Source: CAVPRW01 sp046727435 [NCBI: bacterium] (GTDB lineage Bacteria > Tectomicrobia > Entotheonellia > J063). From it: 21,843 nucleotides of DNA. The position numbers and the translations under genes were made by a program. The stretch's first letter is position 1, and every line of letters starts with the position of its first letter. A model generated the notes under the pieces. That model saw only the letters and a program-made list of their open reading frames with translations. It was not told the origin of the DNA and did no database searches. This document shows, in pieces, positions 7,546 to 19,118 of the stretch. The stretch covers positions 1 to 21,843 of the forward strand of contig JBKPCR010000454.1 in NCBI GenBank assembly GCA_046727435.1, read 5' to 3'.

Positions 7546-7574
7546 ACTGTAAGATAACCCCCCGAGGATGTCAA
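7546..7574 (-). promoter_or_regulatory. Candidate sigma-70-type promoter for the etf/gcv run
   Basis: On the minus strand a perfect -35 TTGACA (7569-7574) is followed after 17 bases by TACAGT (7546-7551, 4 of 6 matches). The -35 overlaps the stop codon of the upstream small gene. A TACAAT about 40 bases further on is an alternative -10 with a poor -35. The leader to etfB would be about 175 bases. Confidence 0.35.
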
Positions 7575-7870
7575 CCCTTTTTTGCCGCGCCATTCCTAGT
7601 CGCACGGGTGCTGCAGAGCGGCTCTGTGAGCCGGATGACGGTCTCGAAAAGGGATGCCAGCCGCTGGTGATTCAGAGGCCCTGGATTGTCGGGTGCCAGT
7701 CGTGACACGACGGCCGCGACGCGCTCGTCGAGGCTTTGTGCGGCTTCCTGGCCCGGTGTGGCCTGGGCGAGCCGAGAGGCGAGCTGACGACGCAGGGTTA
7801 GGAGCTGCACGATGCGCTTGTCCGAAGCCTCTATGGCTTGCAGAGCTTGTTCCAGCACCGAGTGCTTCAT
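7571..7870 (-). CDS. Small helical protein with chorismate mutase type II (AroQ-like) resemblance
   Basis: A 99-residue soluble, mostly helical protein. The layout LEQALQAIEASDKRIVQLL, TLRRQLASRLAQ, SLDERVAAVVSRL, then a C-terminal helix with LFETVIRLTEPL follows the spacing of AroQ chorismate mutases. Aligned by eye with E. coli chorismate mutase, the arginine in the second part of helix 1 and the RE-type arginine are present, but the first-helix arginine, the helix-1 lysine, the RE glutamate and the terminal Ser/Gln positions are not. It may therefore be non-catalytic or only a look-alike. The ATG at 7870 has an excellent AAGGAG 6 bases upstream; the longer reading (to 7984) runs through a terminator hairpin and is rejected. 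It lies behind an attenuator-like leader and ends 205 bases before etfB. Confidence 0.6.
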   Translation of the reverse strand: MKHSVLEQALQAIEASDKRIVQLLTLRRQLASRLAQATPGQEAAQSLDERVAAVVSRLAPDNPGPLNHQRLASLFETVIRLTEPLCSTRATRNGAAKKG

Positions 7871-7899
7871 GGGGTCTCCTTTTATGGTTAGAGACCAAT

Positions 7900-7934
7900 A
7901 AAAAAAGCCGTGAATCACATACGATCCACGGCTT
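7900..7934 (-). terminator. Strong intrinsic terminator in the leader of the AroQ-like gene
   Basis: On the minus strand AAGCCGTGGATC (7934-7923), loop GTATGT, GATTCACGGCTT (7916-7905) make a 12-bp stem with one G-U pair, running into seven consecutive T (7906-7900). The plus-strand reading has no T run. It lies 30 bases before the AroQ-like ATG. The only gene upstream (uvrB) is divergent, so this terminator cannot end a known gene on this strand; it must act inside the leader or end a small RNA. Confidence 0.85.
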
Positions 7935-7987
7935 GACCCGGTGCTTCTGCTGTCGAGAACGCCATGGATCAACAGGCAATCCACGGC
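7924..7987 (-). promoter_or_regulatory. Competing anti-terminator segments (attenuator-like)
   Basis: In minus-strand order, segment 1 GCCGTGGAT (7987-7979), segment 2 ATCCATGGC (7969-7961) and segment 3 GCCGTGGAT (7932-7924, the 5' arm of the terminator) can pair 1:2 or 2:3, each as 9 bp with one G-U. Pairing 2:3 would dismantle the 3:4 terminator; pairing 1:2 would allow it. This is the classic attenuator topology. A 16-codon frame starting at 8019 (MISQVVHVGEMPWIAC, stop at 7969) covers segment 1 with one Trp codon and stops at segment 2, but it has a poorly spaced ribosome site, so the signal sensed is unknown. Confidence 0.5.
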
Positions 7988-8165
7988 ATCTCACCGACAT
8001 GCACTACCTGTGAGATCATCCCTTCTTGAGGCCGCAGCTGCCCCTACACACCTGCCAGCCACGCCAGGGCCAGGTGTTCACCGGGGACATATGCCGCTGC
8101 GAATAGATAGAGCGCTGAACCACCAGACGTCACCCTCTCGAAGGATAGCTCGGAAACTATGCGCT

Positions 8166-8193
8166 ATTATAGATGATGCCAAATGATTGTCAA
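8166..8193 (-). promoter_or_regulatory. Near-consensus sigma-70 promoter for the AroQ-like leader
   Basis: On the minus strand TTGACA (8193-8188) and TATAAT (8171-8166) are both perfect matches to the sigma-70 hexamers, with a 16-base spacer (one short of optimum). The start would be near 8159. It points away from uvrB. For a genome of this GC content such a perfect pair by chance is unlikely. Confidence 0.75.
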
Positions 8194-11778: not shown

Positions 11779-13053
11779 TTAATGAGCCGGTTTCAGGAAG
11801 TGATTGAAGCCAACTTTGCCCACTTTGCCGCCCAGTTTAATCCCCTCCGTGACGGCGTGACGGAAGTGAAACCCAATGTAGACGCGCGAGTCGCCGTTTT
11901 CTTCCGCCGCTTGGGAGAAGCTCGTGAATGAACGCGTGACCCCCGGCAGTGTCGTGCTGGTGGTACTGAAGCTGATCGTGTCGGTGCCGAAGAACCGCGC
12001 CAGTACCTCCGACATGGCGCCTCCCTGGACGCTATGTCCTGAGGTGTAATCTGGGGCAGCGGGGGTCGGCCGCAATGAATTCCAGTCCGGCTCAGCGACG
12101 GTATCCGGGTTGCTGTCGATATCGGCAGCGCGGATGGCGGTGATCGGCCGCCAGAACTTGTAGAAGTACTTGTTCTCAAAATCCGCGATGTAGCCGTCCG
12201 CCGAGGCGAAGTTGAGCAGGCCAAAGAGCCGCGCATTCTCCCACAGATCCAGCCCATGCTGCGCCGAGACGAGTCGCGCGATTCTATTCCACCCATGGGG
12301 AGAGCTTTCTTCCCAGAACAGGGCGATCTCGGTTTGCTCGGCGGTGCGCGTGGTGCTGTTGATGGCGCCCAGACGTTTGACCTCATTGAAATCGGCTGCA
12401 TATTTCTTGCTAGTCAAGGCATAGGGCGCCTTCGCCAGGTACTGCAAGCTGGAGGTCAGCACGAAGGGCGTGACCTCTCCCCATCCCGGCGCGACAGCGA
12501 AATCGGTCCCGGGGATAAACTGGAAGTCCCCCGGATTGGGGCCTGGCTGATAGGTAGAATCCAAAAAGGTGGTGTCCGACCCATCCGCGCCTCTGAGGGC
12601 GAGGATGGCCGCGGCCGCATCCTGGCCGATCTGGACGCCCTGGGTCTTGGCCGGACCATCCGGGATCGCTGCGAGCGCCGCAATGTAGGCCGCTTCGGCG
12701 AGTCCGCTGGCTGCAGCAGCTGCGGCTGGGGGAAAGGGAGGATCAGGGATCTGAGGGAAAAGCTCAATGAGCACATCGTGTGCGGCCGCGGCCACCGCGG
12801 CTTCGGGGGAGGTCCCCGCTGCCGCCTGGGCGTCGAAGGCGTAGGGCTGGAACCGCCGTTCGATCGCATTCAGTGCATCATGGATTGCCACGTGCATCAT
12901 GGCGAAGATCCGTGATTCATGGAGCGGGTCTAGGGTGGACAGGCCGGCAGCGAAGGTGGCGCTGGCGGCGGTCTCATTCCAATCAAGGACTGCATCGGCC
13001 CCGGCAAGCCCTGTCCAACCCAAGACTATGAGTAACACTAATAGCTTCTTCAT
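11779..13053 (-). CDS. Secreted vanadium-dependent haloperoxidase (PAP2 superfamily)
   Basis: A 424-residue protein with a Sec signal peptide (MKKLLVLLIVLGWTGLAGADA) and the vanadate site of vanadium haloperoxidases: KYFYKFWRP (Lys295, Arg302), TSGH (Ser338, Gly339, His340) and SRVYIGFHF (Arg390, His396). Lys-Arg spacing of 7 and Arg-His spacing of 6 equal those of the Curvularia enzyme (K353/R360, R490/H496). The family oxidises halides with hydrogen peroxide; some members are acid phosphatases, since the PAP2 fold is shared. Export to periplasm or outside is predicted. The ATG at 13053 has AAAGGAGG 5 bases upstream, and the longer open frame (to 13224) is rejected. It is divergent from a winged-helix regulator, which may control it. 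Confidence 0.87.
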   Translation of the reverse strand: MKKLLVLLIVLGWTGLAGADAVLDWNETAASATFAAGLSTLDPLHESRIFAMMHVAIHDALNAIERRFQPYAFDAQAAAGTSPEAAVAAAAHDVLIELFPQIPDPPFPPAAAAAASGLAEAAYIAALAAIPDGPAKTQGVQIGQDAAAAILALRGADGSDTTFLDSTYQPGPNPGDFQFIPGTDFAVAPGWGEVTPFVLTSSLQYLAKAPYALTSKKYAADFNEVKRLGAINSTTRTAEQTEIALFWEESSPHGWNRIARLVSAQHGLDLWENARLFGLLNFASADGYIADFENKYFYKFWRPITAIRAADIDSNPDTVAEPDWNSLRPTPAAPDYTSGHSVQGGAMSEVLARFFGTDTISFSTTSTTLPGVTRSFTSFSQAAEENGDSRVYIGFHFRHAVTEGIKLGGKVGKVGFNHFLKPAH

Positions 13054-13350
13054 ACGCGCCTCCTTTTTGCGGGGTCCATTCCTCATGCTGGTTTGTTGAT
13101 CAGAGAGGTGAGACCTCGGATTGCCTGACGGTGGGCGAGGGAGTGCCTCGCGTCTACAGCCCTTGAAGTGCTTGGACACAAAAGGGACTTCACCCCCTTT
13201 CAAGCTGCTCAGTGCTGTCATCACTGTCTAAACACACGACGGTCCCGACTCTACCGCTCCCCGTCTCACAAGTCCTGCACTTTGCCTGCAATTCTTCAGG
13301 AATTTGCTGCAAACTCTGCAACGTGCTATACACGTCTATCCCGCCTCTGC

Positions 13351-13474: not shown

Positions 13475-14128
13475 GTGCGTGCGATGGTGTACCGGTTCGG
13501 CGACTGTACCCTCGACACTCAGCGACATCGATTGCAGCGCGGCGGCCAGCTCATACGGCTGCGGGCCAAAGTGTTGCAGGTGCTGCTCTACCTGCTGGCG
13601 CATCGGGACCGCACGGTCCTGAAGTCGGAGCTGTGCGAGCAGGTCTGGCCACAGCAGTTCATCAGCGACGCGACCCTCGAAAGCACAGTGCGGGCCGTGC
13701 GCCAGGCCATTGGGGATAGCGGGCGCGAACAGCAGCTGATCCAGACCGTCTACGGCTTCGGCTATCGCTTCATCGCGGCTGTGGAGGTTGGTGTCGACGT
13801 TCCGCATGGCACGGCGAGCGAGGCCATGCGGTCGCTTCCCGATTCCGTGTCAGCGCCTCCGCCGAACAACGATCCCCACGCGGCGCTGGTCTCACGCATA
13901 CCATGGTCAGCGGCAGGCGATCACGACCGCCGTACGCCAGGCGTGAGAGATGAGGGGGAGCCTCCACCCCAGGCTGTCGTGGCGGAACTCGCCCTGGAGC
14001 GCCTGGGGGTGCCGTCCCCCGTGTGGGAGCAGAAGCTGGTGACGGTGCTGGCCATCGAGCTCACGTTTCCGACGGCGACGGAGGATGAGGTTGCCGCCTA
14101 CGAGCCCTGGACGGCGGCGAGTCGTTAG
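13475..14128 (+). CDS. Winged-helix (OmpR/PhoB-type) DNA-binding part of a split regulator
   Basis: 217 residues (214 if the ATG at 13484 is used; neither start has a clear ribosome site). Residues about 5-100 are a trans_reg_C winged helix: YRFGDCTLDTQRHRLQRGG, AKVLQVLLYLLAHRDRTVLKSELCEQVWP, and the wing TVYGFGYRF. A Pro/Ala-rich linker follows (about 105-180), then KLVTVLAIELTFPT, the first strand of a class III cyclase-like domain in which the metal-binding Asp is replaced. The frame ends at TAG 14126-14128 in the middle of that domain. The next gene is in the same frame and continues it exactly, so ancestrally this was one protein. It may bind DNA near its own promoter or that of the haloperoxidase; this is inference. 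Confidence 0.75.
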   Translation: MRAMVYRFGDCTLDTQRHRLQRGGQLIRLRAKVLQVLLYLLAHRDRTVLKSELCEQVWPQQFISDATLESTVRAVRQAIGDSGREQQLIQTVYGFGYRFIAAVEVGVDVPHGTASEAMRSLPDSVSAPPPNNDPHAALVSRIPWSAAGDHDRRTPGVRDEGEPPPQAVVAELALERLGVPSPVWEQKLVTVLAIELTFPTATEDEVAAYEPWTAASR

Positions 14129-14143
14129 GAGCAAGCGCTTGTG
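14126..14143 (+). promoter_or_regulatory. Ribosome site created across the interrupting TAG, ahead of GTG 14141
   Basis: TAGGAGCAAGCGCTTGTG: the stop codon TAG (14126-14128) overlaps AGGAG (14127-14131), a good Shine-Dalgarno sequence 9 bases before the in-frame GTG. Ribosomes terminating at TAG could reinitiate here. Without the stop the next residues would be E-Q-A-L-V-A-K. Confidence 0.5.
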
Positions 14144-17125
14144 GCGAAGGTGCAAGGATTCGGCGGAGTCGTCATTCAGCGCTCGCCGTCGCTATTGCTG
14201 GTGGCGTTTGGCATGCCCCAGGCGCTGGAGCAGCTGCCGCAGCGCGCGGTGCAGGCAGCCCTGGCGCTGCGGCAGCTGGCCGCCGAGGGCACTGAGGGAG
14301 ACCCCTGTCCGGCCCTGCGAATGGTGGTGCATTGGGGGCGGCTGCTGGCGGATGTGCACGCGAGCGAGCCGACGACGCAGCTCCGCCCCATTGGGGAGAC
14401 GCTCGCCTGGCCGGTGCGGTTGTTGGGGCAGGCCGCGACGGGGGAAATTCTGCTCTCGCCGGAGGTCGGGCGGCTGGTCGAGGCGTGGTACGAGCTGCAG
14501 GCGCGCGAGGTCAGGCTCCAACGGGGACAATCGGGGCGGATCAGCGTGTACGCGGTGGTGGGGAACAGACCCCAATGGTCCAGACTAGGGATGCATGGAC
14601 TCCGCCCGCTCAGTCCGTTTGTGGGCCGGGACCAGGAGCTCGCGACGCTGGCCGCGCGGCTGCGACAGGTGGAAGCAGGCCAAGGGCAGGTGGTGGGCAT
14701 CATTGGCGAGCCCGGCATAGGCAAGTCACGCCTGTGCTATGAGTTCATCCGTGGCCACGTGCCCCAGCCGTGGGTGGTCCTTGAGACACAGGCAACCGCA
14801 TACGGCCAGGCAACTCCTTATCTCCCCATCCTCGACCTGCTCAAGAGCTACTGCCACATCGAAGACCGCGATGATCCGCCGACGGTCCGTGACAAGCTGA
14901 CCGCCAAGCTCCATGGCCTTGATGACGCCATCACACCCACTGCGTCGACGTTGCTGACGCTCCTCGATTTGCCGGTCAAGGACCCACAGTGGCAGGTCCT
15001 GGATGCGCCCCAGCGCCGGCAGCGCACCCTGGACGCCATCAAACACCTATTGGTGTGGGAGAGCCAGGGGCATCCGCTGCTGCTCGTCGTTGAAAACCTC
15101 CACTGGATCGATGCCGAGACCCAGGCGGCGCTCGACACCCTCATTGAGAGCCTCCCCGCCGCCCGCCTCTTCCTCCTTACTACTTACCGCTCTGAGTATC
15201 AACATGGCTGGGGGAACAAAACTTACTACACGCAACTCCGGCTTGACCCACTGCCAGGCGAGAGCGCCCGCGAACTCACCGGGGCTCTTTTGGGCGACGT
15301 CCCCGAGCTCAAGCCGCTCAAGCAGCGTTTGATCGAGCGGACCCAGGGCAATCCCTTTTTCCTCGAGGAGAGTATCCGGTCCTTGGTGGAAACGCAGGTT
15401 CTGGTCGGCGAGCGGGAGGCCTATCGCCTGGCGCAGGCATTACCGATGATTCAGGTGCCCGCCACGGTGCAGGCGGTCTTGGCGGCACGCATCGACCGGC
15501 TGCCGCCGGAAGAGAAACAGCTCCTGCAAACCGCCGCTGTCATCGGCACCAAGGTGCCCTTTCCCCTGTTGCAGGCCATTGCCGAGCGGCCCGAGGCGGC
15601 GCTGCACCGTGGCCTGGCGCACCTCCAGGCGGCCGAGTTCCTCCACGAGACACGGCTGTTTCCCGACCACGAGTACACCTTCAAACACGTCCTCACCCGG
15701 GAAGTGGCTTACGGCAGCCTGCTGCACGAGCGCCGGCGCGCCTTGCATCGCCAGATCGTGGAGGCCCTGGAGGCGTTGTCTCCCGACCGCCTGGGTGAGT
15801 ATGCCGAGCGCCTCGCCCAGCACGCGCGGCAGGGCGAGGTGTGGGAGAAGGCGGTGCGTTACTGCCGACAGGCCGGGGAGAAGGCGCAGCACCGCGGGGC
15901 CGTGCGCGAAGCGCTCACGAGCTTCGCACAGGCCCTCGACGCGCTCGGCCACCTCCCCGAGCAGCCCGGCACCGGGGTGTTCGCGATCGAGCTGCACCAC
16001 CGCTTCGGAGGCCTGCTGAACTTGGCGGGAGAGCATGCGAGGAGTCTCGCCCAGTTGGGCGAGGCTGCGGCGCGGGCCCGACAACTCGGCGATCGCGCCC
16101 GGCTGGGAGGGGCGCTGTCCAGGATGGTGACGGTGCGCCTCATCGTCGGGGACGTTGAGGGCGCCCTGGCGGCCGGCCGGGAGGCCCTGGCACTGGCGGC
16201 CGCGCTTGGGGATCCTGCGCTACACGTGCACGCCTCCTTTCGGTTGGGGCACGCCTACGCTGGCATTGGCGACTACCGCCGAGCGGCCGAGATGCTGCGG
16301 GCGAACGTGGCGGCGCTCGCGCGGCGCACGCGTGGTGGCGTGCGTCTTTGGTGCATTCACTCGCAGGCATGGCTCGCGGAGGTGTTGGGGATCCTCGGGG
16401 AGTTCGCCGAGGGGAGACGCCAAGGGGAAGAGGCGTTCCGCCTGGCCATGGGCGATGGGCAATGGGACGACGCACCGTTCGGCGTGGTTGCGCGCCTCGG
16501 CTGCCTGTACCTCGCCCAGGGGGACCTGGACGCGGCCATCAGGGTGTTCGAGGAGGGCCTGGCCCTCTGTCGCGCCTCCGGCAACAGGGCCCCGGTATGG
16601 GCCATCGTTGGGGGCCTGGGTGAGGCGTACGCCCACACGGGACGTCTGGCCGAGGGCCTGGCGCTCCTGGAGGAGGCGCGCCGGGACGATCTTCGCACTG
16701 GCCGGTTGGGCGGCAGTTATGTCACCCACCTCCGGCAGCTCAGCGCTGTCTATCTCCGCGCCGGACGCGTCGACGCGGCCTGGCAGCACGCCTGTCAAGC
16801 GGTCGAGCTGGCCCGACAGCTGAAGGTGCGTGGACACGAGGCGGTCGCGCTGTGCCAACTCGGGGCCGTCCACGCCCACGCCAGCCCCCCCGACGTCCAG
16901 CGGGCCGAGATGCGCTACCAGGAGGCGTTGATCCTGGCCGAGGAACTCGGCATGCGGCCGCTCGTGGCCCACTGTCACCGTGGCTTCGGTACCCTGTATG
17001 TGAAGGCCGGTCGGCCGGAGCAGGCCCGCACAGCCCTGGAGACTGCCGTCGAGCTCTACCGCGCGATGGAGATGACGTTTTGGCTGCCCCAGGCCGAGGC
17101 CGCACTGATGCAAATAGGCGGATGA
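14141..17125 (+). CDS. Cyclase-like / AAA ATPase / TPR part of a split regulator
   Basis: 994 residues. Residues 1-140 finish a class III adenylate/guanylate cyclase-like domain (VVIQRSPSLLLVAFGMP, MVVHWGRLL, PIGETLAWPVRLLGQA), but the acidic metal-binding positions are missing, so it is probably a non-catalytic scaffold. An AAA/NACHT-like ATPase follows: FVGRDQELATL (about 162), Walker A GEPGIGKS (189-196), Walker B-type LLLVVENLHWID (residues 313-324, with E-N where D or E-D is usual), and QGNPFFLEES near 400. From about 560 to 990 the protein is a TPR array, as in MalT- and LuxR-type STAND regulators. Such proteins usually sense a ligand through TPRs and switch on ATP. Start is the GTG after TAGGAG. 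The GC content is clearly higher than in the accessory genes that follow. Confidence 0.82.
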   Translation: MAKVQGFGGVVIQRSPSLLLVAFGMPQALEQLPQRAVQAALALRQLAAEGTEGDPCPALRMVVHWGRLLADVHASEPTTQLRPIGETLAWPVRLLGQAATGEILLSPEVGRLVEAWYELQAREVRLQRGQSGRISVYAVVGNRPQWSRLGMHGLRPLSPFVGRDQELATLAARLRQVEAGQGQVVGIIGEPGIGKSRLCYEFIRGHVPQPWVVLETQATAYGQATPYLPILDLLKSYCHIEDRDDPPTVRDKLTAKLHGLDDAITPTASTLLTLLDLPVKDPQWQVLDAPQRRQRTLDAIKHLLVWESQGHPLLLVVENLHWIDAETQAALDTLIESLPAARLFLLTTYRSEYQHGWGNKTYYTQLRLDPLPGESARELTGALLGDVPELKPLKQRLIERTQGNPFFLEESIRSLVETQVLVGEREAYRLAQALPMIQVPATVQAVLAARIDRLPPEEKQLLQTAAVIGTKVPFPLLQAIAERPEAALHRGLAHLQAAEFLHETRLFPDHEYTFKHVLTREVAYGSLLHERRRALHRQIVEALEALSPDRLGEYAERLAQHARQGEVWEKAVRYCRQAGEKAQHRGAVREALTSFAQALDALGHLPEQPGTGVFAIELHHRFGGLLNLAGEHARSLAQLGEAAARARQLGDRARLGGALSRMVTVRLIVGDVEGALAAGREALALAAALGDPALHVHASFRLGHAYAGIGDYRRAAEMLRANVAALARRTRGGVRLWCIHSQAWLAEVLGILGEFAEGRRQGEEAFRLAMGDGQWDDAPFGVVARLGCLYLAQGDLDAAIRVFEEGLALCRASGNRAPVWAIVGGLGEAYAHTGRLAEGLALLEEARRDDLRTGRLGGSYVTHLRQLSAVYLRAGRVDAAWQHACQAVELARQLKVRGHEAVALCQLGAVHAHASPPDVQRAEMRYQEALILAEELGMRPLVAHCHRGFGTLYVKAGRPEQARTALETAVELYRAMEMTFWLPQAEAALMQIGG

Positions 17126-17509: not shown

Positions 17510-17914
17510 TTACCAGATCGTTTCCACTGCTGACGTCTGGATCTTTCTGTCTCGACTGATAACTGGAACGCTAAAATATAAGGCTGTCCCTGCAATGATG
17601 CGATCGGGCATATCTGGGACCTCATCGCGGATCACGCGGCCAACCGCCAGGGCAACTGCCATCGTTAGATCAGCCACGCGCAAGGCGCTGTCTTGCAGGC
17701 GGAGCGCTTCTTGAAGGCGCGTGAAGGATTCGGGGGGAATCCTGCCCTTTTCACAGAGGTAGACAACTTCGACAAGCGAAATGGAGGAGATCAGGACGGG
17801 CACGCCGCGTCTTCCAGCCTCATCAATAAACCGTTTCGCCCGATCGGATAGCCGGGCATCAGCGTTCAGATACCAGACGGCTGTGTGAGTATCGATAACC
17901 GCACTCGGGATCAT
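17510..17914 (-). CDS. PIN-domain toxin (VapC-like ribonuclease)
   Basis: A 134-residue PIN protein. Acidic residues of the active site are in place: Asp8 (AVIDTHTAVWYL), Glu49 (SISLVEVVYL), Asp104 (MPDRIIAGTAL) and Asp122 (ISRDRKI). VapC-type PIN toxins cleave specific RNAs. The ATG at 17914 overlaps the antitoxin stop (ATGA), the usual arrangement of a toxin translated after its antitoxin. A GTG at 17941 lies inside the antitoxin and is rejected. The C-terminus VETIW is the normal end of this subfamily, so the gene looks intact even though a broken gene follows. Confidence 0.88.
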   Translation of the reverse strand: MIPSAVIDTHTAVWYLNADARLSDRAKRFIDEAGRRGVPVLISSISLVEVVYLCEKGRIPPESFTRLQEALRLQDSALRVADLTMAVALAVGRVIRDEVPDMPDRIIAGTALYFSVPVISRDRKIQTSAVETIW

Positions 17915-18162
17915 ATGTCTTCCCGGGGAAAGTCTCCCCACATTTCTTGCCGTGCTTTATCGATCTCTTCTGCGCTGATGCTAACGCCAAAATCCTTCCA
18001 CAACCCGTATAAGGAGCGAAGCGGCTTCTCTCCATCCTCAGCCCGCTGGAGCGGCTCTTCTAGGTCGGATACGATCGCCTCGATAAGGCGTAGCTTTTGA
18101 CCTGGAGTGAGGTGCTTAGCTAAGCTCAGAACTTCTTCGAATGTCGGCTCTTGTGTCGCCAT
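17911..18162 (-). CDS. Antitoxin partner of the PIN toxin
   Basis: An 83-residue protein, MATQEPTFEEVLSLAKHL at the start and EIDKARQEMWGDFPREDI at the end. The tail with ARREMW-x-FPREDI is characteristic of antitoxins encoded immediately before PIN toxins of this type; the C-terminal part would bind and block the toxin, and the N-terminal helices would dimerise and bind DNA. The ATG at 18162 has GGAGG 7 bases before it. A longer frame to 18207 has no support. It overlaps the end of the unrecognised gene upstream by about 47 bases. Confidence 0.85.
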   Translation of the reverse strand: MATQEPTFEEVLSLAKHLTPGQKLRLIEAIVSDLEEPLQRAEDGEKPLRSLYGLWKDFGVSISAEEIDKARQEMWGDFPREDI

Positions 18163-18412
18163 ACATGTCCTCCATGATGAAGCTAACCATTCGATAATCT
18201 TCATCAAGCGCGAGCATAGTCCTGCCGGCTAACACTGTGAAGCACTTATCCCCCTTCCGGTGCACGAGTTGGCAACTCTTCAACCGATAGCCATTATGAA
18301 TCGGAGCTTCACTGGCAGCATGGATATCATAAGCAGCACCACGAAATCCGGCTGGCCGGATTCCAGCAGTGGTAAGTTCTTCCTCGTCAGTTTCGGCCGT
18401 CAGCACTTCCAT
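18116..18412 (-). CDS. Hypothetical protein of unknown family
   Basis: A possible 98-residue protein starting MEVLTAETDEEELTTAGIRP; I do not recognise it. It has an acidic N-terminus and a more regular C-terminal half (GYRLKSCQLVHRKGDKCF, MLALDEDYRMVSFIMEDM) that reads like a folded beta-rich domain. No signal peptide or membrane segment. The Shine-Dalgarno is weak. Its last 15 or so codons overlap the antitoxin gene in another frame, so either its true end was lost (a remnant) or it is translationally tied to the antitoxin. The frame is open further upstream to 18568 without plausible content. Confidence 0.35.
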   Translation of the reverse strand: MEVLTAETDEEELTTAGIRPAGFRGAAYDIHAASEAPIHNGYRLKSCQLVHRKGDKCFTVLAGRTMLALDEDYRMVSFIMEDMYGDTRADIRRSSELS

Positions 18413-18486: not shown

Positions 18487-18831
18487 TTACTTGGCATTGC
18501 CCAACTGTTCCAAAATTATCCAGATACCCCTTTTCAGAACAGGTAGATCCCTCTGGGTAATTTTCCACACTGCCGTGAGATCAACGCCCATATAGTCATG
18601 ATTCAAGACATCACGCAGCCCCGCAATGCGACGCCAGGGGATCTCATGATGCCGGGAGCGCAGTTCCTGGGATAGTCTCTTGGTCGCTTCCCCGATGATT
18701 TCAAGTTGCCGAATCACAGCGTCCTGCCAGTGCGTGGTGGCCATAAAGACATCACGACCGACCGAAATATAAGATTCGATCCGCGCCATAGCATCCAGGA
18801 TGTGCCTGAGATACAGATGGTCGCCTTTCAT
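18487..18831 (-). CDS. hepT: HepT-like toxin (DUF86)
   Basis: A 114-residue helical protein with the HepT motif R-x4-H-x-Y as Arg73, His78 and Tyr80 in RDVLNHDY. Described HepT proteins are HEPN-family RNases neutralised by an MntA nucleotidyltransferase, which adds AMP to the motif tyrosine. It overlaps the mntA-like gene by 4 bases (ATGA) and follows it, as in known MntA/HepT pairs. Length is typical (110-140). Family function is established; activity here is inference. Confidence 0.88.
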   Translation of the reverse strand: MKGDHLYLRHILDAMARIESYISVGRDVFMATTHWQDAVIRQLEIIGEATKRLSQELRSRHHEIPWRRIAGLRDVLNHDYMGVDLTAVWKITQRDLPVLKRGIWIILEQLGNAK

Positions 18832-19118
18832 AAGCTGACCGCTTCCCTCAGCACCTCTTCTCGGATGTAGGGGCTGATTGCCCCTTCGGTGACGACATCC
18901 ACTTCATAGCCGACGAGATCTTCTAGATCTTGCTTGATAGCGATGATGTCAAGTAGACTCCGGCCGGGATCGAGCTTTACCAAAATGTCGATATCGCTGT
19001 CGGGTCGAGCTTCGCCACGAGCCAGGGAGCCGAAGACGCGCACGTCTCGCGCCCCATGGCTGGCGGCGATTCGCAATATCTCGTCGCGCTTGTCTTGTAG
19101 AACCTTGTCGATTTCCAT
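18828..19118 (-). CDS. mntA: MntA-like minimal nucleotidyltransferase antitoxin
   Basis: A 96-residue minimal nucleotidyltransferase. The catalytic signature GS-x10-DxD is exact: Gly30-Ser31, Asp42 and Asp44 in VFGSLARGEARPDSDIDILV; a third acidic residue is expected at Asp74 or so in YEVDVV. It begins MEIDKVLQDKRDEILRIAAS and has CGGAG 7 bases before the ATG. With the overlapping HepT gene it makes an intact toxin/antitoxin pair whose antitoxin works by AMPylating the toxin. Confidence 0.88.
   Translation of the reverse strand: MEIDKVLQDKRDEILRIAASHGARDVRVFGSLARGEARPDSDIDILVKLDPGRSLLDIIAIKQDLEDLVGYEVDVVTEGAISPYIREEVLREAVSL

What the first reader, a model, noticed from the sequence alone, without database searches (positions are those of the whole stretch)
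7900..7990. Attenuator-like terminator with competing segments ahead of an AroQ-like gene
Seen: a 12-bp stem plus 7 T terminator on the minus strand lies between a consensus promoter and an ORF with a perfect Shine-Dalgarno, and no gene on that strand could use it as its 3' end. Two upstream segments give a 1:2 / 2:3 / 3:4 choice (GCCGTGGAT at 7979-7987 and 7924-7932, ATCCATGGC at 7961-7969), the topology of classical amino-acid attenuators. Inference: transcription of the chorismate mutase-like gene, and possibly the etf/gcv run beyond it, is set by read-through.
Basis: partly seen in the sequence, partly recalled or inferred. Interest (0 to 1): 0.65.

Follow-up and report, generated by a model that had tools for sequence, protein, structure and literature searches.

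The report
Tryptophan-codon attenuator before chorismate-mutase-like gene
The RNA leader of this gene looks like a switch in which a ribosome stalling at tryptophan codons decides whether transcription continues into a small chorismate-mutase-like protein; such switches are known, but a tryptophan switch on this kind of protein is unexpected.

Summary
In detail: on the minus strand a perfect promoter (8193-8166), a leader of about 290 nt, three competing segments, a terminator (7934-7900), a Shine-Dalgarno and a 99-aa AroQ-fold gene (7870-7571). The attenuator reading is supported and extended. Genome G001 (UvrB 80% identical) has an ortholog (37%) behind the same segments. Upstream of segment 1 both leaders carry a Trp-rich short ORF: TWPWRGW here, VWRWWWTALR-stop there. 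Folding with a ribosome footprint gives a his-operon-type switch: with the ribosome on the Trp codons an upstream strand takes segment 1 and 2:3 (antiterminator) can form; at the leader stop 1:2 forms and the terminator follows. This is clear in the relative. In the window the stop state is firm, but the stalled state equals the ribosome-free state and depends on transcript ends. Both proteins have lost the equivalents of Arg11 and Glu52 of E. coli chorismate mutase; G001 has a canonical mutase elsewhere. So Trp, not Phe/Tyr, seems to gate a probably non-catalytic mutase-like protein. Read-through control of etf/gcv is not supported. Limits: two sequences, no expression data.

The parts
8166..8193 (-). 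sigma-70-type promoter TTGACA-16-TATAAT
   Evidence: 12 of 12 matches; transcription start near 8159 is inferred from spacing
8016..8123 (-). candidate leader ORF, GTG start (in-frame ATG at 8090), ...MSPVNTWPWRGWQVCRGSCGLKKG*; SD-like GAGAGGG upstream of the GTG
8055..8072 (-). candidate regulatory codons TGG CCC TGG CGT GGC TGG
   Evidence: with the ribosome here 1:2 is 0.04-0.21 in the folding model; depends on transcript ends
8003..8011 (-). upstream strand (his-type 'B'), ACAGGTAGT; pairs with 7980-7972 and lies partly under a ribosome at the leader stop
7978..7989 (-). segment 1 (his-type 'C')
7959..7970 (-). segment 2 (his-type 'D')
7923..7934 (-). segment 3 (his-type 'E'), 5' arm of the terminator, alternative partner of segment 2
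7900..7916 (-). segment 4 (his-type 'F') and T tract of the intrinsic terminator
7876..7882 (-). Shine-Dalgarno AAAGGAG
7571..7870 (-). AroQ-fold (chorismate mutase-like) gene, 99 aa, with the residues matching R11, K39, E52 and Q88 of E. coli CM replaced
7546..7574 (-). promoter-like site TTGACA-17-TACAGT ahead of etfB; suggests that etfB does not depend on the attenuator
   Evidence: 10 of 12

Best explanation
It is a leader-peptide (ribosome-mediated) transcription attenuator that senses charged tRNA-Trp and controls a small, probably non-catalytic chorismate-mutase-like protein. RNA polymerase transcribes a leader whose short ORF holds a cluster of Trp codons. With enough Trp the ribosome runs to the leader stop and covers the strand just downstream (B). 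Segment 1 (C) then pairs with 2 (D), segment 3 (E) pairs with 4 (F), and transcription ends. When Trp-tRNA is short the ribosome stalls at the Trp codons, B pairs with segment 1 and its loop, segment 2 pairs with segment 3, the terminator cannot form in time, and the gene is transcribed. Shown here: the segments, the leader ORFs, their recurrence in a relative, and the switch in a folding model. Inferred: translation of the ORF, the direction of control, and the loss of catalysis.
For: (1) The relative's locus L053 in G001 has the gene's ortholog (37% id, E 8.5e-10) with the same four segments, T tract and SD. Where the arms differ, the 1:2 stem keeps pairing: A-U to C-G and U-G to A-U. An A to G change in segment 3 is matched by T to C in both segment 2 and segment 4 (read by eye after moving one gap). 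(2) Both leaders hold a Trp-rich ORF upstream of segment 1: L053 MPCSVLSIPVWRWWWTALR* with SD -5.9 kcal/mol (4 Trp in 5 codons in 0 of 2000 shuffles) and the window's TWPWRGW (3 in 6 codons in 30 of 2000) (both thresholds set after seeing the ORFs). (3) Ribosome-footprint folding of transcripts ending 2 nt past segment 3. L053: 1:2 is 0.00 at three of the four Trp codons with all three footprints and 0.00, 0.00 and 0.31 at the fourth, with 2:3 between 0.03 and 0.71; from two codons after the last Trp to the stop 1:2 is 0.84-1.00; at the first six codons it is 0.90-1.00. Window: 1:2 0.04-0.21 and 2:3 0.66-0.80 at the Trp codons, against 0.99 and 0.00 at the stop. (4) With the upstream region shuffled and the segments kept, the Trp-versus-stop drop in 1:2 was reached in 1 of 150 (window) and 0 of 150 (L053), the 2:3 gain in 2 of 150 each. 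(5) The B:C strands differ in sequence (ACAGGTAGT/ATTGCCTGT; CCGGTAAGGC/GCCTTACCGG) but have the same place and effect. (6) Arg11 and Glu52 equivalents are L and V/G in the two orthologs but R and E in 4 of 4 other CMs aligned.
Against: Only two sequences; on them the pair counts do not exceed shuffled partners (118 of 500 as high). In the window the stalled state is not special to Trp codons: 2:3 is favoured without a ribosome and with one at the ATG or anywhere from codon Asn (index 81) to Val (108); only passage beyond about codon 114 turns 1:2 on. The window's switch depends on transcript ends: stopping 2 nt short of segment 3's end gives 1:2 at 0.68-0.99 even with a ribosome on Trp codons; with 15 nt cut from the 5' end the two states are about even at the later end points; with 30 nt cut only the first Trp codon flips it, and at the shortest end point none does. 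14 of 150 shuffled window leaders also showed a drop above 0.5 (2 of 150 for L053). In the finished RNA 3:4 dominates in every state, so the choice must be made during transcription. In L053 2:3 is only 0.03-0.42 at the second and third Trp codons. The window's leader start is uncertain (GTG with good SD, ATG with poor SD). G001's trpE shows no Trp leader in the roughly 180 nt upstream that its contig holds. Induction of a mutase by Trp lack would be metabolically odd if the protein were active.
Confidence: 0.72

Rival explanations
1. Classical three-segment attenuator using another ORF, MISQVVHVGEMPWIAC (8019-7969), which overlaps segment 1 and ends in the 1:2 loop, with one Trp codon.
For: SD-like AGAAGGGA (-5.3 kcal/mol). 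A ribosome at its Trp codon gives 1:2 0.00 and 2:3 0.74 when segment 3 has just been made; at its stop both are 0.
Against: A single Trp codon; the one L053 ORF over segment 1 that one search lists (GTG 1398) has no Trp, and L053's Trp codons all lie upstream.
Confidence: 0.1
2. The attenuator works as described but the protein is an active chorismate mutase (or another chorismate enzyme), giving cross-pathway control by Trp.
For: CM_2 Pfam hit above the curated cut-off (30 against 27 bits); Arg28 and Arg51 equivalents are kept in both orthologs and Lys39 in L053.
Against: Arg11 to Leu and Glu52 to Val/Gly in both, Lys39 to Thr in the window; every NCBIfam model listed stays below its cut-off for both proteins; G001 has a canonical CM elsewhere (L054).
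Confidence: 0.2
3. A ligand- or protein-binding leader (riboswitch or RNA-binding protein) that happens to contain Trp codons.
For: The no-ribosome state of the window favours the antiterminator in the base model; the leader is long and structured (z -2.47).
Against: No Rfam family at gathering scores in the window, only sub-threshold hits to unrelated families (best mir-876, 23 bits against 88); the upstream half aligns poorly between the two leaders apart from the Trp cluster and strand topology.
Confidence: 0.1
4. A constitutive leaky terminator with chance repeats.
For: Terminator-like sites are common in shuffles (2.3 expected in 4 kb).
Against: The whole arrangement recurs ahead of the ortholog; 0 of 200 shuffles fold as well.
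Confidence: 0.05

Closest known systems
his operon attenuator of Salmonella (A:B default; B:C and D:E when stalled; E:F terminator)
   Same: Regulatory codons upstream of the switching segments; stalled ribosome gives B:C and D:E, release at the stop gives the E:F terminator; in L053 the untranslated state also favours termination. Topology taken from passages of PMC4046918.
   Different: Trp instead of His codons; controls a single CM-like gene, not the his operon; in the window's base model the untranslated state does not favour termination; no Rfam match.
trp operon attenuators (Corynebacterium and Streptomyces, PMC1262725 passages; E. coli trp recalled)
   Same: Leader peptide with clustered UGG codons, antiterminator and terminator with a shared strand.
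   Different: Those passages report trp operons and trpS as the Trp targets; here the target is a chorismate-mutase-like gene, and one more upstream strand is used.
Attenuators of pheA, chorismate mutase/prephenate dehydratase (Phe leader recalled), and the Phe/Tyr-rich leader found here at L064
   Same: A leader peptide and terminator ahead of an AroQ-fold gene. A table in PMC2659441 (passage) even lists an Rfam Trp_leader (RF00513) match ahead of Shewanella pheA.
   Different: pheA makes the Phe-branch enzyme and the same paper's text counts it under phenylalanine; here the codons themselves are Trp, read in both sequences, and the protein is a short stand-alone domain with lost catalytic residues.
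Anti-TRAP (rtpA) of Bacillus subtilis
   Same: A small regulatory protein made when charged tRNA-Trp is short (PMC11255114 passages).
   Different: T-box and unrelated zinc protein; here a leader peptide and AroQ fold, and the partner is unknown.

Membership tests
ribosome-mediated (leader-peptide) amino acid attenuator | intrinsic terminator between promoter and gene | tested here: met
   for the window; in L053 the terminator is met but no promoter-like site was found just upstream
ribosome-mediated (leader-peptide) amino acid attenuator | mutually exclusive antiterminator sharing a strand with the terminator | tested here: met
   present in both sequences
ribosome-mediated (leader-peptide) amino acid attenuator | short ORF with clustered codons of one amino acid | tested here: met
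   clear in L053 (0 of 2000), weaker in the window (30 of 2000)
ribosome-mediated (leader-peptide) amino acid attenuator | stall position favours antiterminator, stop position favours terminator | tested here: inconclusive
   folding model only: met and robust for L053's loss of 1:2; in the window met in the base model but end-dependent and not special to Trp codons
ribosome-mediated (leader-peptide) amino acid attenuator | leader translated, and read-through changes with the amino acid | not testable with these tools
   needs ribosome profiling or reporters
his-type six-strand topology | B:C and D:E against C:D and E:F | tested here: met
   structures, both sequences
his-type six-strand topology | untranslated leader defaults to termination through A:B | tested here: inconclusive
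   L053: 1:2 0.73 without ribosome; window 0.07; both change with the 5' end
Rfam RNA families (4227, among them amino acid leaders) | covariance model score at gathering cut-off | tested here: not met
   0 matches in the whole window; sub-threshold hits to unrelated families only for the two leaders
AroQ-class chorismate mutase | CM_2 family by sequence | tested here: met
   Pfam CM_2, 30 bits against cut-off 27. The window protein alone found no CM among solved structures (only an ArsR-type protein at E 0.038); the single-sequence model has three helices but mean pLDDT 58 and no useful fold match
AroQ-class chorismate mutase | catalytic residues Arg11, Arg28, Lys39, Asp48, Arg51, Glu52, Gln88 (E. 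coli numbering; list from PMC5526877 passages) | tested here: not met
   window keeps 2 of 7, L053 3 of 7. Of the losses, Arg11 and Glu52 (4 of 4 kept in comparison CMs) are telling, Lys39 too (window only); Asp48 is absent in 4 of 4 and Gln88 in 2 of 4 comparison CMs, so these tell little

The most novel reading that the evidence does not exclude
A Trp-starvation switch that makes a catalytically dead chorismate mutase. [quoted passage not shown]
Probability: 0.25. Interest if true: 0.75.

Novelty: new variant of a known kind. Interest (0 to 1): 0.5.

Why it matters
Leader peptides usually name the pathway they control; a Trp leader on an AroQ-fold gene breaks that rule and, with the lost catalytic residues, points to a small regulator at the chorismate branch point. 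A 2010 survey (PMC2965389, passages) knew leader-peptide systems in Proteobacteria and Actinobacteria and added Firmicutes; this one lies in a poorly sampled lineage related to a MAG labelled Nitrospinota (only 5 genomes of its phylum are held). The two orthologs give a direct test of whether a dead mutase steers flux.

Tried and rejected
Read-through control of etf/gcv: rejected (etfB has its own promoter-like site; in the relative etfB stands elsewhere). Rfam families: none. Covariance model R1 (built from the window and L053) over 386 relatives of G001, with strict filters and at most 10 candidates scored per genome: 4 genomes with hits at E 0.01, namely G001's own row and three (G245, G058, G056) that by eye are terminator-like hairpins (L087, L088) or lie in GC-rich coding sequence (L089), none ahead of a CM gene. 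Profile A1 (same two proteins) over 386 relatives, at most 13 candidates scored per genome: 39 genomes with hits at E 1e-9, but only G001's L075 (same place as L053, a row of the profile) scored like an ortholog (155.8 bits; next 56.9). First genome-contig scan with the CM-like protein: no relative; the allowed second scan used EtfB (52 loci; nearest L001, 67%). One viral-contig scan and plasmids: none; phages and E. coli genomes were not searched. Structure: single-sequence AlphaFold model of low confidence and no useful PDB match, so no weight is put on it.

Upstream scan of CM loci: read minus-strand loci in the wrong orientation; corrected (55 loci, including duplicates, a few non-CM hits such as L055 and L074, and L069 with only 58 nt upstream). 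Next to a terminator, a Trp-rich ORF was seen only at G001's locus (L053/L075) and a Phe/Tyr-rich one at L064. Seven other loci (L057, L091, L092, L095, L097, L104, L112) had aromatic-rich ORFs, none with a terminator between it and the gene. The scan asked for 4 aromatic residues in 8 codons and would have missed the window's own three Trp.

Literature: the searches (0 papers; 52 papers, 15 listed; 9 papers; 704 papers, 15 listed) show no title or abstract start about a Trp leader ahead of a chorismate mutase gene; only PMC2659441 among the nine was opened (passages), and its table lists an Rfam Trp_leader match ahead of Shewanella pheA. The library is open-access papers only. All papers cited were seen as passages, none read whole.

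Full report
What is there. On the minus strand a perfect promoter (TTGACA-16-TATAAT, 8193-8166) is followed by about 290 nt of leader, an intrinsic terminator (7934-7900), a Shine-Dalgarno and a 99-aa gene at 7870-7571. The gene matches Pfam CM_2 at 30 bits (cut-off 27) and falls below the cut-off of every NCBIfam model listed.

A relative with the same device. The window's own genome is not held. The window's EtfB led to a MAG labelled Nitrospinota isolate J063 (L001, 67%), handle G001. UvrB is 80% identical over the part held in G001 (residues 81-667), against 71% in G002 and G003 of the same phylum; G004 and G005 gave only pieces. G001 has a 90-aa ortholog (37%, E 8.5e-10; its other CM scores 7.8e-4) at L053:1489-1761. 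Ahead of it are the same four segments, a seven-T tract and an SD. Its neighbours differ: an amidohydrolase-like ORF upstream and a peptidase-like ORF downstream (labels by eye). The element therefore travels with this gene and not with etf or gcv. Among 386 relatives of G001, only G001 had it by RNA model and only G001 had the ortholog by profile; G001's copy is a row of both models, and each search scored a limited number of candidates per genome.

The codons. Upstream of segment 1 in L053 is MPCSVLSIPVWRWWWTALR-stop, with a good SD, starting at 1291, inside the end of the upstream ORF, which ends at 1301. In the window the corresponding place holds TWPWRGW in an ORF that starts at GTG 8123 (good SD) or ATG 8090 (poor SD) and stops at 8016. 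Four Trp in five codons were reached in 0 of 2000 shuffles of the L053 leader; three in six in 30 of 2000 for the window (thresholds chosen after seeing the ORFs). The window's ORF alone would not convince; the pair does.

The switch. I folded transcripts ending 2 nt past segment 3 with the ribosome's footprint held unpaired, moving it codon by codon with three footprint sizes. In L053, 1:2 is lost when the ribosome stands at codons from about Ile to the last Trp, and is at 0.84-1.00 from two codons after it to the stop. The reason is visible in the structures: CCGGTAAGGC, at the end of the leader ORF, pairs with GCCTTACCGG, the segment-1 tail and loop. In the window ACAGGTAGT (8011-8003) does the same with ATTGCCTGT (7980-7972). 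The sequences are unrelated, the place and consequence the same. Shuffling only the upstream part mostly removes the effect: the observed drop in 1:2 was reached in 1 of 150 (window) and 0 of 150 (L053), the gain in 2:3 in 2 of 150 each; a drop above 0.5 occurred in 14 and 2 of 150. This is the his-operon scheme (B:C, D:E against E:F; PMC4046918, passages).

Results against. In the finished RNA the terminator dominates in all states, so the choice must be kinetic. In the window the antiterminator is favoured with no ribosome (0.78) and with a ribosome at most places before codon 111, so a stall at Trp codons is not special there; what is firm is that a ribosome near the stop gives 1:2 at 0.98-0.99. 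The window's balance also depends on the ends of the transcript: two nt short of segment 3's end, 1:2 stays at 0.68-0.99 with a ribosome on Trp codons; with 15 nt cut from the 5' end the states are about even at the later end points; with 30 nt cut only the first Trp codon switches it clearly. L053 without a ribosome favours 1:2 (0.73; 0.33-0.58 with 30 nt cut). Pair counts on two sequences do not beat shuffled partners (118 of 500), although two pairs of the 1:2 stem changed on both sides and a change in segment 3 is matched in segments 2 and 4 (by eye after moving one gap).

The protein. A profile of the two orthologs with four other CMs (A5) matches 19 PDB sequences at E 1e-3, AroQ domains and PchB, and its ungapped alignment to the B. 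subtilis domain 5gmu lets the active-site list of PMC5526877 (passages) be mapped. The window protein alone finds none of them. Arg11 is Leu and Glu52 is Val or Gly in the two orthologs; the window has also lost Lys39 (Thr) and Gln88 (Cys). The four comparison proteins keep Arg11, Lys39 and Glu52, 4 of 4 each, but Asp48 in 0 of 4 and Gln88 in 2 of 4. G001 encodes a canonical mutase (L054) with no Trp-rich leader or T run in the 420 nt upstream. A catalytic role is thus unlikely, though not excluded.

Context. In L064 (genome G050) a canonical mutase gene stands behind a Phe/Tyr-rich leader (IFNYFYYYDLF) and a terminator, the expected specificity. Of 55 loci scanned (duplicates and a few non-CM hits included) only G001's had a Trp-rich ORF next to a terminator; the scan's threshold would have missed the window's. 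G001's trpE shows no Trp leader in the roughly 180 nt its contig holds upstream. A table in PMC2659441 lists an Rfam Trp_leader match ahead of Shewanella pheA (passage), so a trp-like leader on a mutase gene has been tabulated before, there under phenylalanine. Why Trp should control an AroQ-fold protein is open. My guess is a regulator of the branch point, similar in logic to anti-TRAP (PMC11255114, passages); this is inference.

Verdict.

Noticed in passing
L064:1342-1489 (genome G050): A canonical monofunctional chorismate mutase gene preceded by a Phe/Tyr-rich leader ORF (MKRKLKIFNYFYYYDLFSVVEGER) and a terminator: a likely Phe/Tyr attenuator.
   Followed up: partly
window 7574-7546: Promoter-like TTGACA-17-TACAGT whose first hexamer overlaps the stop of the CM-like gene, ahead of etfB.
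   Followed up: partly
window 18487-19118, minus: HepT-like (HEPN) and nucleotidyltransferase (MNT-type) genes side by side, a likely toxin-antitoxin pair (Pfam).
   Followed up: partly
window 17510-18207, minus: PIN-domain gene with a 98-aa ORF without Pfam match overlapping its start, VapBC-like in layout.
   Followed up: partly
window 13475-17125, plus: OmpR-type DNA-binding ORF (13475-14128) and a 994-aa AAA_16/TPR ORF (from 14141) lie in the same frame, 12 nt apart; possibly one protein interrupted by a stop, not examined.
   Followed up: no
window 11779-13224, minus: Weak vanadium chloroperoxidase/PAP2 matches, below the curated cut-offs.
   Followed up: no
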